This document shows positions 4,774 through 10,680 of a DNA stretch of 64,000 nucleotides, in pieces. The translations under genes were made by a program, and so were the position numbers. The notes below the pieces were generated by a model. That model searched no databases, was not told where the DNA came from, and saw nothing but the letters and a program-made list of their open reading frames with translations. How positions within the stretch are numbered: position 1 is the first letter of the stretch; each line of letters begins with the position of its first letter. This DNA comes from Psychrobacter sp. JCM 18900 (GTDB lineage: Bacteria; Pseudomonadota; Gammaproteobacteria; Pseudomonadales; Moraxellaceae): contig NZ_CAJHBL010000003.1 in assembly GCF_904846625.1 (NCBI RefSeq), positions 496,001 through 560,000 on the forward strand, given 5' to 3'.

Positions 4774-6030
4774 ATGTTTAAAGATATTTCTATCAAAGAT
4801 TTTGATCCAGTACTTGCTGAAGCGATGGCCGCAGAAAGCGTTCGTCAAGAAAACCATATCGAGCTTATCGCCTCTGAAAACTACTGCTCACAAGCAGTGA
4901 TGGAAGCACAAGGTACTGACCTTACCAATAAATACGCAGAAGGCTATCCTGGCAAGCGTTATTATGGTGGTTGTGAGCATGTGGACGTAGTTGAGCAATT
5001 GGCTATTGACCGTGCTAAAGAGTTGTTCGGTGCAGAGTATGTGAACGTTCAGCCGCATTCTGGTAGCCAAGCAAACTCAGCCGTATTTTTAGCATTGCTA
5101 GAAGCAAATGACACTGTACTAGGCATGAGCTTAGACGCTGGTGGTCACTTGACGCATGGCGCACACATCAACTTCTCAGGTTTGAACTACAATGCCGTAC
5201 AGTACGGATTGGTAGATGGCACTGGCCTTATTGATTATGATCAAGTAGAGAGCTTGGCGCGTGAGCATAAGCCAAAAATGATCATCGCGGGTTTCTCAGC
5301 ATACTCACAAGTAGTTGATTGGCAGCGTTTCCGTGACATCGCGGACGAAGTAGGCGCGTATCTATTGGTCGATATGGCACACGTTGCTGGTCTAGTTGCT
5401 GGCGGTGTTTATCCAAACCCAGTACCTTTCGCTGATGTGGTTACAACGACGACGCACAAAACTCTACGTGGCCCACGCTCAGGTATGATTTTGGCACGTG
5501 ATGAAGTATTGGCTAAGAAGCTAAACTCAGCTGTATTCCCAGGCAACCAAGGTGGCCCGTTGATGCATGTCATCGCTGCAAAAGCGGTTTGCTTTAAAGA
5601 AGCGTTAGAAGATAACTTCAAAACGTATCAGCAGCAAGTAGTGAAAAACGCGCAAGCCATGGCAAAAGTGGTTCAAGAGCGCGGCTATGAAGTTATCTCT
5701 GGTGGTACTGAAAACCATCTAATGCTGATCAGTCTCGTTAAGCAAGAGATGACGGGTAAAGAAGCAGACAAATGGCTTGGTGAAGCACACATCACTGTCA
5801 ACAAAAACGCTGTACCAAACGATCCAAAATCACCATTCGTGACTTCTGGTATTCGTATCGGTACGCCAGCGATTACTACTCGTGGCTTCAACGAAGCACA
5901 AGCGGGTGAGTTGGCAGGTTGGATCTGTGACGTACTAGACAGCCGCGGTGATGAAGTGGTTGCGACTGAAGTACGCGCTAAAGTAGAAGCTATCTGTGCA
6001 GAATTACCAGTCTATGCTAAAAATCAGTAA
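4774..6030 (+). CDS. glyA: Serine hydroxymethyltransferase
   Basis: PLP enzyme interconverting serine + tetrahydrofolate with glycine + 5,10-methylene-tetrahydrofolate; cytosolic, main one-carbon source. At 418 aa it is full length. It shows [11 protein letters not shown] near the N-terminus, [15 protein letters not shown], the DMAHVAGL segment and the PLP-lysine motif [12 protein letters not shown] around residue 230. The ATG at 4774 is the start expected for the family. A strong terminator follows at once, so it is monocistronic. The next gene downstream is an alanine/glycine symporter, a sensible neighbour for glycine metabolism although separately transcribed. Confidence 0.97.
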
Positions 6031-6050
6031 ACTTTAGAATGGTAATAAAA

Positions 6051-6083
6051 AAAACCGCTAAGCTTTTGCTTAGCGGTTTTTTT
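6051..6083 (+). terminator. Rho-independent terminator of glyA
   Basis: AACCGCTAAGC and GCTTAGCGGTT form a perfect 11-bp stem with a TTTT loop, followed by a T-run. It sits about 20 bases after the glyA stop codon. Confidence 0.92.
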
Positions 6084-6439
6084 GTTATTGCTCTCTATGA
6101 ATATTATGTCATTTAACGCAAACCTATGTTGATATTGCCATTGAGCTCTTTTAATTATATTTAAGTCCGTTATTTAACCTGAAAATTACTACCGACATTT
6201 TTCGATAAGTGTAGTGAGCTTGATTGAGTTCCGCTATTAGTTTTAAAGAGCTAAGTTGATGTTTAATTAAGAAAAATGTGTAAATCTCTTTGTTTATACA
6301 AAAATATTAGTATATAGTCAGTATTGAACATTTAGTAATAATACTAATACAAATTATAATAAATAGTTACACTTTGTATTAGTATCGCTGTAATTGATTG
6401 AATAATTATATAAATATTATTTTCAATAAAGGGATTTAC
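6084..6439. other. AT-rich leader region of the alanine/glycine symporter
   Basis: Very AT-rich 356-base spacer. I see no gene, no clear hairpin and no recognisable glycine-riboswitch core. It presumably carries the promoter of the symporter gene. Confidence 0.4.
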
Positions 6440-7975
6440 ATGAAAAAACAATCTTTAGTCGCAACGATGCTATTACTCAGCACGACTCTTGCGCAAGCAG
6501 CAGAACAATCAGGTTTAGCAGCATTTGGAGCAGGTCTTGATGGCTTTATGGCCAATATATTTGGCTGGTTCGTCGATCTTATTTTCTTTTCAGTACCTCT
6601 TGGAGACGTCAGCTTCCCGCTCATTGTAGGTTGGTTATTAGTTGCTGCACTCATCTTCACCTTTTACTTTGGATTTATTCAATTTCGCCAAATAGGCTTG
6701 TCTTTAGATATTGTCAGAGGCAAATATACCGATCCCAATCCGGCCAACAAAGAAGAAGGCGAGGTCAGCCACTTTCAAGCCTTAGCTACTGCATTATCAG
6801 GTACCGTTGGTCTTGGTAATATCGCAGGTGTTGGTGCAGCACTTGCTATTGGTGGACCTGGCGCTACCTTTTGGATGATTATGGTCGGCCTATTCGGTAT
6901 GGCGACTAAGTTTGTAGAATGTACGTTAGGCGTCAAATATCGTACGGTACTACCATCTGGTGTCGTATCAGGTGGCCCTATGTACTACCTAAGCCGCGGC
7001 ATGGCTGAACGTGGTATGGGCGGATTAGGTAAGTTTCTGGCTGTTGGGTTTGCACTCATGTGTATATTGGCGACCTTTGGTGCTGGTAACATGTTCCAAG
7101 GTAACCAAGCCTTTGCAGTCATGAGCTCTACTTTTAGCATTCCAACGGATTACAGTGTGTTCTTTGGTATTGGCTTAGCATTTTTAGTCGGTATGGTTAT
7201 CATTGGTGGTATGCCGCGCATCGCAACCGTTACCGAAAAAGTCGTACCTTTTATGGCTTTGTTATACATTACTATGGCGGTAATCGTACTGATTGCTAAC
7301 TTTAATCATATCGGCACTGCATTTGGCGAGATTTTCACAGGTGCCTTTACTGGTGCTGGCGTGGCTGGTGGCTTTATTGGCGCATTGATTCAAGGTTTAA
7401 AACGTGCAACTTTCTCTAACGAAGCGGGCGTTGGTTCAGCCGCTATTGCTCACTCAGCAGTAAAAACCAAAGAGCCTGCTACTGAGGGTCTAGTAGCGCT
7501 ATTAGAGCCTTTCATTGATACGGTTGTTATCTGTACGATGACGGCGCTTGTTATTACTATCTCTGGGGTGAACACTGCCGCAAACTTGCAAACCCAAGCA
7601 CTTACTGGTGTGGATCTAACCCGTGCAGCCTTCATGGAAACGGCTCCTATCTTCCAGTATTTCTTAGCTGTCGCGGTATTATTGTTTGCTTTCTCAACGA
7701 TGATTTCATGGTCATATTATGGTCTAAAAGCTTGGACTTACCTCTTTGGTGAAGGTAAAGGCGGCGAGATGATATACAAACTTATCTTCTTAATCTTCGT
7801 TGTTATCGGTACCATCGTACAGTTCAGCTTCGTTATCGACTTCTCAGATGCGGCTCTGTTCGCTATGGCGATCTTCAACATCATCGGTCTGTACTTCTTG
7901 ATGCCAATTGTGAAAAGAGAGGTTAATTCTTTCATAGCGCGTGTGAAAAGTGGTGAAATTAAGAAGTATAAATAA
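6440..7975 (+). CDS. Alanine/glycine:cation symporter (AGCS) family protein
   Basis: Inner-membrane sodium-coupled uptake of alanine or glycine. The 511-aa protein has about ten hydrophobic segments and the family motif GTVGLGNIAGVG near residues 115-125, plus SNEAGVGSAAIAHS around residue 335. The ATG at 6440 is chosen because AAAGGGA sits about 5 bases upstream; an in-frame ATG at 6398 lacks such a site. The chosen start gives MKKQSLVATMLLLSTTLAQAA, which reads like a cleavable signal peptide ahead of the first membrane helix. Position after glyA hints at glycine as substrate, but that is inference. It ends at a terminator shared with gltS. Confidence 0.9.
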   Translation: MKKQSLVATMLLLSTTLAQAAEQSGLAAFGAGLDGFMANIFGWFVDLIFFSVPLGDVSFPLIVGWLLVAALIFTFYFGFIQFRQIGLSLDIVRGKYTDPNPANKEEGEVSHFQALATALSGTVGLGNIAGVGAALAIGGPGATFWMIMVGLFGMATKFVECTLGVKYRTVLPSGVVSGGPMYYLSRGMAERGMGGLGKFLAVGFALMCILATFGAGNMFQGNQAFAVMSSTFSIPTDYSVFFGIGLAFLVGMVIIGGMPRIATVTEKVVPFMALLYITMAVIVLIANFNHIGTAFGEIFTGAFTGAGVAGGFIGALIQGLKRATFSNEAGVGSAAIAHSAVKTKEPATEGLVALLEPFIDTVVICTMTALVITISGVNTAANLQTQALTGVDLTRAAFMETAPIFQYFLAVAVLLFAFSTMISWSYYGLKAWTYLFGEGKGGEMIYKLIFLIFVVIGTIVQFSFVIDFSDAALFAMAIFNIIGLYFLMPIVKREVNSFIARVKSGEIKKYK

Positions 7976-8012
7976 ATGGTTTGATTGAACATTCTCTTAT
8001 AACTTGATAATT

Positions 8013-8048
8013 AAAAAAGCCCACCAAGATGAGTCTTGGCGGGCTTTT
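8013..8048. terminator. Bidirectional terminator between the AGCS gene and gltS
   Basis: AAAAGCCC-A-CCAAGA pairs with TCTTGG-C-GGGCTTTT, with one internal mismatch and a TGAG loop. There are A residues on one side and T residues on the other, so it can work for both convergent genes. Confidence 0.85.
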
Positions 8049-8110
8049 CGATGGCTAGTATTTGTTATTTGCTAGATGGCTATTAAGTTTTAATCTGGGA
8101 CAGTATCAGC

Positions 8111-9385
8111 CTACATAAACGGCAACTTCGTAAAAATCTGCAATATCGTGGCATTAACGATATCAACGAAGAACGCACCAACCATTGGCACGATTAGGAA
8201 TGCTTTAGGTGAAGGCAGATAGCGATCAGTGACTGCCTGCATATTTGCAATCGCTGTCGGTGTTGCACCCATACCAAAACCACAATGACCCGCTGACAAT
8301 ACAGCTGCGTCATAGTCTTTACCCATAATTTTAAAGGTAATCAGGTAAACGTAGATAATCATAATGATGGTCTGTACAACCAATATGACTAATACAGGAC
8401 CCGCCAAATCGGTCAGCTGCCAAAGTTTTAAAGACAATAATGCCATCGCTAAAAATAGGCTTAAAGATGCATTACCAAGTACATCAATTGAGCGGTCAAA
8501 CATATCAAAATTGAAGACCATCGTCAGTACATTGCGAATGATGACACCACCTGCCAGTGCCCATACGAACGTCGGCAACTCAAACCAGGTGCCTTCAGCA
8601 ACTATGGCCATTACATCGGCAAAAGCCAAAGCACCTGCGAATAGTGCCAAAGTCTCGATAGTAGAGGACGCTGTGATAAAGCGCATGCTATCAGGTCTTT
8701 CAAAGATATCTTTATTACTACCTGCAGACTCCTCATCGTGTTTGGTGCTATATAACGACTGTGCACCAGCAACTTTTTCGATATCGCTAGGATCAGGGTT
8801 GGCTAGCGTTGGTTTTAACCCAAGTCGGTTAATCAAGCGACGGGCAACAGGACCCCCAACGATACCACCTGCGACCAAACCATAAGTAGCAACCGCGATA
8901 CCAAGCGTCGTCGCACCGACCACGCCGTAGTCTTGTTCTAACGTAATACCCCAAGCGCCTGCTGTACCGTGACCACCAGTTAGAGCGATAGACCCTGTCA
9001 CCAGACCGAGCAGAGGATCAAGTCCTAACGCACTTGCCATGGCCACACCAACGACATCCTGCAATACAATGAATACTGAAACAACGATAGTAAAAATCAA
9101 TAATGGTGTGCCGCCTGCTTTTAATCGACTGAAATCAGCACTCAGACCGATGGACGCAAAGAACATCAACATGGTGGCGGTCTGTAATCCTTGATGAAAG
9201 TTAAAACTATATCCCCAAACCATATTGAGAGCATAGACAACAATCGCCGCGACCAGACCACCAGCAACAGGTTCTGGAATATTAAAGTCTTCTAAAAACT
9301 TGACTCTCCGCACCAAAAACCGCCCAAGCAGCAGCACTAAGGTGGCCAATATCAGGGTGTAATAACCGTTTAAGGTAATCTCCAT
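8111..9385 (-). CDS. gltS: Sodium/glutamate symporter
   Basis: Inner-membrane Na+-coupled glutamate uptake. At 424 aa it is slightly longer than E. coli GltS (about 400). It has ten or more hydrophobic stretches and the two inverted halves typical of the family: FIPEP-like NIPEPVAGGLVAA near residue 37, TGGHGTAGAWG near residue 138, and GHCGFGMGATPTAIANM near residue 370. The central cytoplasmic loop (about residues 205-235) is hydrophilic. The ATG at 9385 has AAAGGATT 5-6 bases upstream. A long hairpin lies in its leader (see 9415-9454). Confidence 0.94.
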   Translation of the reverse strand: MEITLNGYYTLILATLVLLLGRFLVRRVKFLEDFNIPEPVAGGLVAAIVVYALNMVWGYSFNFHQGLQTATMLMFFASIGLSADFSRLKAGGTPLLIFTIVVSVFIVLQDVVGVAMASALGLDPLLGLVTGSIALTGGHGTAGAWGITLEQDYGVVGATTLGIAVATYGLVAGGIVGGPVARRLINRLGLKPTLANPDPSDIEKVAGAQSLYSTKHDEESAGSNKDIFERPDSMRFITASSTIETLALFAGALAFADVMAIVAEGTWFELPTFVWALAGGVIIRNVLTMVFNFDMFDRSIDVLGNASLSLFLAMALLSLKLWQLTDLAGPVLVILVVQTIIMIIYVYLITFKIMGKDYDAAVLSAGHCGFGMGATPTAIANMQAVTDRYLPSPKAFLIVPMVGAFFVDIVNATILQIFTKLPFM

Positions 9386-9414
9386 AGGTTAATCCTTTCT
9401 ATAAAATAAATTAA

Positions 9415-9454
9415 CCTGAATTCGGGATAAATATGGCTTTATCTCGAATTCAGG
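9415..9454 (-). terminator. 17-bp stem hairpin between the barstar gene and gltS
   Basis: Arms at 9415-9431 and 9438-9454 are inverted copies (CCTGAATTCGGGATAAA) with one mismatch and a 6-base loop. On the minus strand it is followed by TTAATTTATTTT, so it can end the RNase-barstar transcript. It also lies about 30 bases before the gltS start and could influence gltS translation or read-through. Confidence 0.6.
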
Positions 9455-9521
9455 TTTCTATGATGACGAATAATTATCGGTGACTATCGGCGGTCGGGCT
9501 TGCAATATAGGCTTTCAACGA

Positions 9522-9926
9522 CTAACTTTCTAACTTATAAGCTTCATCCTCAGATGGCACGATGATCCACAATTGTGGTTTGCCAAATTCTCTAAAGGCA
9601 TCCTCAATGATGCTTTTAAAGACATTGAAGTCCTCAGTATTTATCCTTTTGACGTCTGTTAAATCCAGCCTCAAATAAATTGCCTCACTGTCTGTTAGAC
9701 AATCCCATGCACTGTCCCAGTTGTGTGAAAAATAACTAGGAAAGTCACAGGCCTTGGCCAAACTCGTCAATAACTCAGTTTTCTCGAGCGTGTCACCTAC
9801 GGCTATAGTAACAGCCTGCGCAGGAATGCTAGTACCCAGTGCTGTACCGTTTTGGTTAATGTGGTCTTGATTAACATGGCTTTGATTAACGTAGTGGATG
9901 GCTTGTTTCATATCAGCTCGTTTCAT
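9522..9926 (-). CDS. Barstar-family ribonuclease inhibitor
   Basis: Cytosolic inhibitor predicted to neutralise the RNase encoded just upstream. Of 134 aa, the C-terminal 90 residues match the barstar fold: leader VGDTLEKTELLTSLAKACDF, then YFSHNWDSAWDCLTD, which corresponds to the barstar inhibitory helix and loop, then a strand-helix-strand ending in LWIIVPSEDEAYKL. The ATG at 9926 is chosen: it lies one base after the RNase stop (TAATATG on the minus strand) and AGGTG sits 7 bases before it. An upstream in-frame ATG at 9959 would overlap the RNase by 32 bases and lacks this site. The first ~40 residues are Asn/His/Gln-rich (QSHVNQDHINQN) and are not part of the barstar fold. Stop-start spacing implies translational coupling. 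Confidence 0.88.
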   Translation of the reverse strand: MKRADMKQAIHYVNQSHVNQDHINQNGTALGTSIPAQAVTIAVGDTLEKTELLTSLAKACDFPSYFSHNWDSAWDCLTDSEAIYLRLDLTDVKRINTEDFNVFKSIIEDAFREFGKPQLWIIVPSEDEAYKLES

Positions 9927-9927
9927 A

Positions 9928-10680
9928 TTAAGGCACCTGTAGTCTTTGAAAGCTATCATAGTGGTCGATAGTCAAGTAATAGACGGTAGGTGGGTTACCA
10001 CCTGTGACGATACGCCGTGCGCCGCGATGAGAGACACCAGGGGTGGGTACGGTATATTCGCGGTAGTAGCCTTGTGACTGGGCGGGTAGTCTGCCTTCAC
10101 GGTTATAAAACGTCGTGCCATCTTTATTTGGATAAGGAAACGGGCCGCCTTGCTGAATAAGCGCAATCGTATTATCGACCTGTGCATCACCTGTTATACC
10201 AGCACGGGCGACTTGGCTCGTATTATTATTTACGTCCTGCGATACCGTTGTCGACTCGATGCTATCAGCAAACAATGTCGAATTTAAATCACCAAAGAAA
10301 TAGAAAGCGACAGCGATTATAGCGATAAGGCTAAATAGCGTAGAGCCTAAGCTTCTTTTATTGGGTCTGCTGTTTTGACTGCTACGATTTGAGTTACGAG
10401 TGCTATGATGGCTATTTCTATTGGCATTAGTAGGTGTATAGCTTGGAACATCTGATGCAGTATCTTGGTCAAGGCTCAACGAAGATGAGGTCACTTCAGT
10501 AGCTCTCAATTGATTTTTGTCGTTACGAGCACTGTTAAAATAGACACTTTGACCAACCGTTATAGGCTTTGCCAATCGTGCTTTGCTAATATGAAAGAAC
10601 ACATCTTCACTTTGATTATCTACATCGATAAAGCCATAGCCTTTATCTTCGTTCCAGTGCTTAATCTTGCCACTTTGCAT
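9928..10680 (-). CDS. Cold-shock domain / transmembrane / guanyl-specific RNase (RNase Sa-barnase type) fusion
   Basis: A 250-aa three-part protein. Residues 1-65 are a cold-shock domain with RNP1-like KGYGFIDV and RNP2-like VFFHIS. Residues 66-110 are a Ser/Asn/Arg-rich linker. Residues 111-130 (LGSTLFSLIAIIAVAFYFFG) form one membrane helix preceded by RPNKRS, so by the positive-inside rule the N-terminus is cytosolic and the rest outside. Residues ~160-250 match microbial guanyl-specific RNases: GGPFPY, FYNREGRLP, YYREYTVPTPG, RGARRIVTGG and IDHYDSF. The catalytic set aligns as Glu208, Arg219, Arg223 and His240 (RNase Sa E54, R65, R69, H85), so the enzyme looks active. It is followed and coupled to a barstar gene. 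GGGAGCGG lies upstream of the ATG. The biological target is unknown. Confidence 0.87.
   Translation of the reverse strand: MQSGKIKHWNEDKGYGFIDVDNQSEDVFFHISKARLAKPITVGQSVYFNSARNDKNQLRATEVTSSSLSLDQDTASDVPSYTPTNANRNSHHSTRNSNRSSQNSRPNKRSLGSTLFSLIAIIAVAFYFFGDLNSTLFADSIESTTVSQDVNNNTSQVARAGITGDAQVDNTIALIQQGGPFPYPNKDGTTFYNREGRLPAQSQGYYREYTVPTPGVSHRGARRIVTGGNPPTVYYLTIDHYDSFQRLQVP

What the first reader, a model, noticed from the sequence alone, without database searches (positions are those of the whole stretch)
9522..10680. Membrane-tethered cold-shock-domain RNase with a coupled barstar: possible under-described toxin-immunity or RNA-processing system
The upstream gene joins an RNA-binding cold-shock domain, a single membrane helix and an RNase Sa/barnase-type catalytic domain with the full catalytic set (Glu208, Arg219, Arg223, His240). 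The next gene is a barstar inhibitor, starting one base after the RNase stop (TAATATG) with its own AGGTG. Known barnase-type RNases are secreted via a signal peptide; here an RNA-binding domain stays on the cytosolic side and the RNase would face outside by the positive-inside rule. This raises the question whether it is an envelope-anchored toxin, a contact-dependent weapon, or a cytosolic RNase recruited to cold-shock RNAs with the helix as a localiser. Family identities are by motif recognition; the function is inference.
Basis: partly seen in the sequence, partly recalled or inferred. Interest (0 to 1): 0.75.

Follow-up and report, generated by a model that had tools for sequence, protein, structure and literature searches.

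The report
Membrane-anchored cold-shock RNase with barstar
Many Psychrobacter species carry a two-gene pair in which an RNase predicted to face outward from the inner membrane is fused to an RNA-binding-type cold-shock domain on the inside, followed by the gene for its likely inhibitor; it is a rare, conserved variant of the known barnase-barstar kind, and what the cold-shock domain does is not known.

Summary
Window 9928-10680 (minus) encodes a 250-aa protein: cold-shock domain, one hydrophobic helix, RNase Sa-type domain. A barstar gene starts one base after its stop. All three domains pass Pfam cut-offs. Of 82 non-CdiA Psychrobacter loci examined, 76 are intact; Glu208, Arg219, Arg223 and His240 are invariant in 74 of 74 distinct proteins. 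A barstar homologue lies just downstream in 82 of 82, its frame broken in two. Flanking charges predict N-in/C-out in 76 of 76: cold-shock domain in the cytosol, RNase in the periplasm. Both domains are under strong purifying selection, the linkers are not. The RNase diverges about as slowly as neighbouring housekeeping genes, unlike a polymorphic toxin tip. The same fusion occurs in one genus of another order; one species there keeps the RNase with no barstar found in its genome. Most other proteobacterial relatives looked at have a plain export-type segment instead, many with a barstar. I read it as a variant of the simple exported-RNase/barstar pair with an added cytosolic RNA-binding-type module. 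The pair is known; my searches found no paper on the fusion. Topology, activity and inhibition are predicted, and the role of the cold-shock domain is open.

The parts
9928..10680 (-). gene for the 250-aa cold-shock-domain / helix / RNase protein (stop codon included)
10486..10680 (-). cold-shock domain, residues 1-65, with KGYGFI and VFFH motifs
   Evidence: PF00313 46.9 bits; motif conservation; model pLDDT 90 or more over residues 1-60
10294..10347 (-). hydrophobic helix, about residues 112-129, predicted membrane-spanning, N-in/C-out
   Evidence: mean Kyte-Doolittle over 17 residues 2.35, minimum 2.05, and charge asymmetry in 76 of 76
9931..10194 (-). RNase Sa-type domain, residues 163-250
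   Evidence: PF00545 76.5 bits; RNase Sa3 and Sa2 best solved matches
9934..9938 (-). AGGTG ribosome-binding-like site of the barstar gene, inside the end of the RNase gene
   Evidence: read from the sequence
9522..9926 (-). barstar gene, 134 aa (stop codon included)
   Evidence: PF01337 44.4 bits; barstar folds lead the fold search

Best explanation
An operon for an inner-membrane-anchored, periplasm-facing RNase of the RNase Sa type together with its cytosolic inhibitor. The protein would be inserted N-in/C-out, so that the RNase domain crosses the membrane unfolded and acts in the periplasm, most likely on RNA from outside or from lysed neighbours. Barstar, translated from the same message right after the RNase, would neutralise RNase that folds in the cytosol by mistake. 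The cold-shock domain stays in the cytosol as a nucleic-acid-binding module, perhaps holding mRNA or ribosomes at the membrane so that insertion is co-translational. Shown: domains, catalytic residues, pairing, selection, distribution. Inferred: topology, RNase activity, inhibition, substrate, and everything about what the cold-shock domain does.
For: Domains above cut-offs; catalytic residues in 74 of 74; charge asymmetry in 76 of 76; relatives without a cold-shock domain carry a hydrophobic export-type segment before the RNase (37 of 45 loci outside Psychrobacter over my threshold, two of the 45 having a cold-shock domain too); L101 has apparently lost the cold-shock domain in frame and keeps helix, RNase and barstar; G670 keeps the fusion with no barstar found, which is easier if the RNase is normally outside; barstar Asp35 and Asp39 kept in 76 of 76 distinct frames; dN/dS 0.075 and 0.062 in the two domains; Zhang et al. 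2012 (PMC3482391, section 41) argue that outward trafficking removes the need for premade inhibitor.
Against: No experiment; topology is from charge and hydropathy only. Two further loci (L026 stop after the cold-shock domain, L027 frameshift in it) look broken, so loss of the domain may be plain decay. No conserved partner gene points to a substrate. Barstar Glu80 is replaced (Gln in 72 of 76), so tight inhibition is not certain. Eight of the 45 outside loci show no export-type segment over my threshold.
Confidence: 0.6

Rival explanations
1. Self-directed toxin-antitoxin or abortive-infection device: the RNase acts inside its own cell when barstar falls short or export is blocked.
For: Abutting RNase-inhibitor pair in 82 of 82. 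At four of 20 empty proA loci barstar traces remain while at most a 20-residue RNase tail is left, as if the RNase had to go first. Cold-shock domains occur in RNA-targeting CoCoNuT systems (PMC11090510, passages).
Against: Predicted RNase-outside topology; G670 keeps the RNase without a barstar found; intact RNase with broken barstar at L085 (genome only 84% complete). Three of the four loci with traces belong to one loss. PADLOC gave only a generic cold-shock-domain model, CSD_V, 33.2 bits. The neighbourhood is housekeeping (proA, gltS).
Confidence: 0.13
2. Long-signal secreted RNase: the helix is cut after insertion and the RNase is set free.
For: Some relatives look like cleavable secreted RNases (for example L164, L172, by eye).
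Against: The stretch after the helix is poorly conserved (dN/dS 0.46) and by eye shows no shared cleavage motif; no signal-peptide program was run.
Confidence: 0.12
3. Contact-dependent or other interbacterial weapon.
For: Same RNase and inhibitor families form the tip and immunity of a CdiA-like protein in another Psychrobacter genome, G083, and of an RHS-like protein on a plasmid.
Against: No delivery domain in the protein; no tip polymorphism: RNase median 87.9% identical over 12 divergent loci, between proA 91.2% and gltS 87.5%.
Confidence: 0.06
4. Cytosolic RNA-processing enzyme: both ends inside, the cold-shock domain brings RNAs to the RNase and barstar tunes it.
For: An RNA-binding-type domain and an RNase on one chain.
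Against: One helix with a positive N side and a negative C side in 76 of 76 puts the ends on opposite sides.
Confidence: 0.05

Closest known systems
Simple exported barnase/RNase Sa-barstar gene pairs (Zhang et al. 2012, PMC3482391)
   Same: RNase of the same Pfam family, export-type segment, barstar directly downstream, no tip polymorphism
   Different: A cold-shock domain and a long linker stand before the helix, so the protein has a cytosolic half
CdiA- or RHS-type toxins with an RNase Sa-like tip and barstar-like immunity
   Same: Same RNase and inhibitor families
   Different: Large proteins with repeats; here no delivery domain was seen
CSD-DUF1294 membrane proteins
   Same: N-terminal cold-shock domain before hydrophobic segments; one is encoded in the same genome
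   Different: No RNase and no inhibitor; the cold-shock domains fall in another part of the tree
CoCoNuT RNA-targeting systems (PMC11090510, passages only)
   Same: Cold-shock domains associated with nucleases
   Different: Built around McrBC-type GTPases; no barstar; not membrane-anchored RNase Sa proteins

Membership tests
RNase Sa-type guanyl-specific RNases (PF00545) | family score above curated cut-off | tested here: met
   76.5 bits against 24
RNase Sa-type guanyl-specific RNases (PF00545) | catalytic Glu, Arg, Arg, His | tested here: met
   invariant in 74 of 74 distinct intact proteins; residue roles recalled
RNase Sa-type guanyl-specific RNases (PF00545) | RNase Sa fold | tested here: inconclusive
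   fold search finds RNase Sa2 and Sa3, but model pLDDT there is only 54-70
RNase Sa-type guanyl-specific RNases (PF00545) | guanyl-specific RNA cleavage | not testable with these tools
   needs an assay
Barstar inhibitors (PF01337) | family score and active-site-plugging acidic residues | tested here: met
   44.4 bits against 23.4; Asp35 and Asp39 in 76 of 76, but Glu80 replaced; roles recalled
Simple exported RNase-barstar pair | RNase first, inhibitor directly downstream | tested here: met
   82 of 82 non-CdiA Psychrobacter loci, two with broken barstar frame; not met in G670
Simple exported RNase-barstar pair | RNase exported from the cytosol | tested here: inconclusive
   predicted by hydropathy and charge in 76 of 76, no experiment
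Polymorphic or CDI toxin | delivery domain or secretion partner | tested here: not met
   Pfam finds only CSD and Ribonuclease above cut-off; neighbours proA and gltS
Polymorphic or CDI toxin | fast-changing toxin tip | tested here: not met
   RNase dN/dS 0.062; 87.9% median identity
Type II toxin-antitoxin | inhibitor indispensable while the toxin is intact | tested here: not met
   G670: fusion with catalytic residues, no PF01337 match in the genome; one species
Retron Se72-type cold-shock effector | NCBIfam equivalog score above cut-off | tested here: not met
   28.4 bits against 82

The most novel reading that the evidence does not exclude
It would be an RNase-barstar pair with its own cytosolic RNA sensor, a kind my searches did not find described.
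Probability: 0.07. Interest if true: 0.8.

Novelty: new variant of a known kind. Interest (0 to 1): 0.45.

Why it matters
An RNA-binding-type domain and an RNase apparently kept on opposite sides of one membrane, both under strong selection across a genus, is an arrangement that the usual view of exported barnase-type enzymes does not explain. It gives a concrete case for asking what membrane-bound cold-shock domains do, a question that also applies to CSD-DUF1294 proteins. Natural variants (cold-shock domain missing in one species, barstar missing in another) are ready-made comparisons for experiments.

Tried and rejected
Weapon reading: not preferred, no delivery part and no tip polymorphism. 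Mobile element: no phage match at E 1e-5; 17 plasmid records match the RNase domain, the cold-shock domain, or the cold-shock domain plus helix region, none covering 80% of the query. Decaying gene: not preferred, dN/dS low in both domains. Convergent fusion in the distant genus: a cold-shock-domain tree of 31 rows puts the 14 CSD-RNase rows in one clade (95/89, 96% of 200 bootstraps), with a long-branch warning and with only the rows my pattern caught (two free cold-shock proteins, 15 long ones); the RNase-domain tree of 28 rows does not resolve it (5% of bootstraps; L173 was missed by my pattern). Strict dependence on barstar: not upheld. Promoter and terminator scan: 4 found against 4.1 expected, 2 against 1.2. 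Literature: no paper held barstar with cold shock domain, Psychrobacter with barstar, Psychrobacter with ribonuclease and cold shock domain, or the four-term sets; some searches gave listings, from which I read passages of PMC11090510 and passages and section 41 of PMC3482391. The library lacks most subscription journals.

Full report
What is there. Minus strand, 9928-10680: 250 aa with a cold-shock domain (residues 3-65), a variable linker, one hydrophobic helix, a second variable linker and an RNase Sa-type domain (165-247), both domains above Pfam cut-offs. The closest solved structures by sequence are RNase Sa3 and Sa2 (E 8.7e-24 and 1.5e-21), then cold-shock proteins. A 134-aa barstar (PF01337, 44.4 bits) starts one base after the RNase stop, with AGGTG seven bases before its ATG. 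The own genome has one PF00545 and one PF01337 match and five cold-shock-domain matches; one of the other four sits in a long protein, a CSD-DUF1294 protein.

Distribution in the family. PF00545 was found in 84 of 299 genomes of the family: 83 in the window's genus and one in another (G029), whose gene is a short RNase with a hydrophobic N-terminus plus a barstar. In the named collection 28 of 32 loci found bear the title Psychrobacter. Twenty same-genus genomes without a match were listed; 195 more unmatched genomes were not listed, so the genus total is unknown. One genus member (G083) has the domain only as the tip of a haemagglutinin-repeat, CdiA-like protein and is set aside. That leaves 82 Psychrobacter loci. 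76 are intact. The other six: L030 contig edge, L115 interrupted by Ns, L026 stop after the cold-shock domain, L027 and L072 frameshifts in the cold-shock domain, L101 apparent in-frame loss of the cold-shock domain with helix, RNase and barstar kept.

Barstar. A homologue lies downstream on the same strand in 82 of 82. Its frame is broken in L072 and L085; both genomes are rated only 84-85% complete, so sequencing error is possible. L081's barstar runs off its contig. A start codon lies one base after the RNase stop in 76 of 82.

Topology and selection. In 76 of 76 intact proteins the 20 residues before the helix are more positive (mean +4.6) than the 20 after (mean -2.4): predicted N-in, C-out. 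Three of 76 contain a cysteine, none of these in the RNase domain. Among 40 divergent sequences, median pairwise dN/dS is 0.075 for the cold-shock domain, 0.062 for the RNase, 0.16 for the helix, 0.58 and 0.46 for the linkers; dS is high, so values are rough, and saturated pairs were dropped, leaving 218 to 470 of 780 pairs. In 12 of the 28 named loci (those with proA under 95% identical and all five queries found) the RNase is a median 87.9% identical to the window, against 91.2% for proA, 87.5% for gltS, 84.0% for the cold-shock domain and 62.6% for barstar. So the RNase is not a fast-changing toxin tip; barstar changes faster.

Structure. AlphaFold2 on 42 rows: cold-shock domain confident, most of the linkers and helix region under 50, RNase 54-70. 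The fold search found cold-shock proteins and RNase Sa2/Sa3. Barstar model mean 79.5, barstar folds lead the list, one under E 0.001. The RNase fold thus rests mainly on sequence.

Place and history. In 27 of 28 named Psychrobacter loci both proA and gltS flank the pair; the other is a 3-kb contig without proA. Of 81 loci in the wider set (L115 left out), 73 gave a proA match in the short flank; of the other eight, one is at a contig edge, five have proA within about 3.2 kb in a shuffled order, and two lie elsewhere. On a proA tree of 93 rows, from which those eight are missing, absence needs four changes, which fits one gain and three losses. At four of 20 empty proA loci (L144, L145, L148, L149) barstar traces remain, with a 20-residue RNase tail at L144 only; 16 show no trace. 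Barstar traces outliving the RNase suggest the RNase went first, but L144, L148 and L149 belong to one loss.

Outside the genus. PF00545 was found in 15 of 369 class genomes, 14 of 390 order genomes, 35 of 398 phylum genomes, the window's own counted each time, samples overlapping. Of 45 loci outside Psychrobacter that I checked (8 matches got no locus and were not), two have a cold-shock domain, both in one genus of another order (G446, G670); 37 have a hydrophobic segment over my threshold before the RNase; 26 a detected downstream barstar. That detector missed barstars I read by eye at seven loci (L061, L166, L169, L170, L171, L175, L181), so at least 33 of 45. G446 has CSD-helix-RNase plus barstar. 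G670 has CSD-helix-RNase, a tRNA-Gly starting 57 bases after its stop, and no barstar beside it or found in a genome rated 100% complete. In that order 3 of 32 genomes have PF00545. The cold-shock-domain tree groups Psychrobacter and this genus, which favours one fusion; the RNase tree does not resolve it.

Interpretation. Zhang et al. 2012 (PMC3482391; passages, section 41) describe widely distributed simple barnase-barstar pairs as an incipient toxin-immunity order without notable polymorphism, and argue that outward trafficking removes the need for premade inhibitor. The present pair fits that, with a cytosolic cold-shock domain added. Absence of barstar in G670 and of the cold-shock domain in G172 (L101) both fit an RNase that is normally outside. 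What the cold-shock domain does is the open point: its constraint says it matters in most species, its loss in one says the pair can persist without it. The passages seen of PMC11090510 show cold-shock domains in systems predicted to target RNA, which keeps the sensor reading alive.

Noticed in passing
L116 (G083) 6056-10429 and 5646-6056, minus strand: A haemagglutinin-repeat, CdiA-like protein of 1457 aa with an RNase Sa-like tip (39.2 bits), followed by a weak barstar match (21.5 bits, just under the 23.4 cut-off), in another Psychrobacter genome.
   Followed up: partly
L188 2279-4246 and 4243-4650: An RHS-like open frame with an RNase Sa-like tip and an annotated barstar gene behind it on an IncC plasmid of Citrobacter freundii; the RNase frame is not in the PLSDB gene table.
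   Followed up: partly
L187 2495-3157: Halomonas plasmid protein with a cold-shock domain, a hydrophobic stretch and weak zinc-ribbon-like matches under cut-off.
   Followed up: no
L195 2812-3510 and counterparts in L196, L197, L201: A ZIP-like gene (24.6 bits in L195, under the 35.1 cut-off) sits behind proA in deeper Psychrobacter lineages; by eye similar sequence lies there in some genomes without the pair (L150, L151).
   Followed up: partly
window 9840-9926: The N-terminal part of the barstar is repetitive (NQSHVNQDHINQ) and varies in length between close relatives, in steps of about five residues.
   Followed up: no
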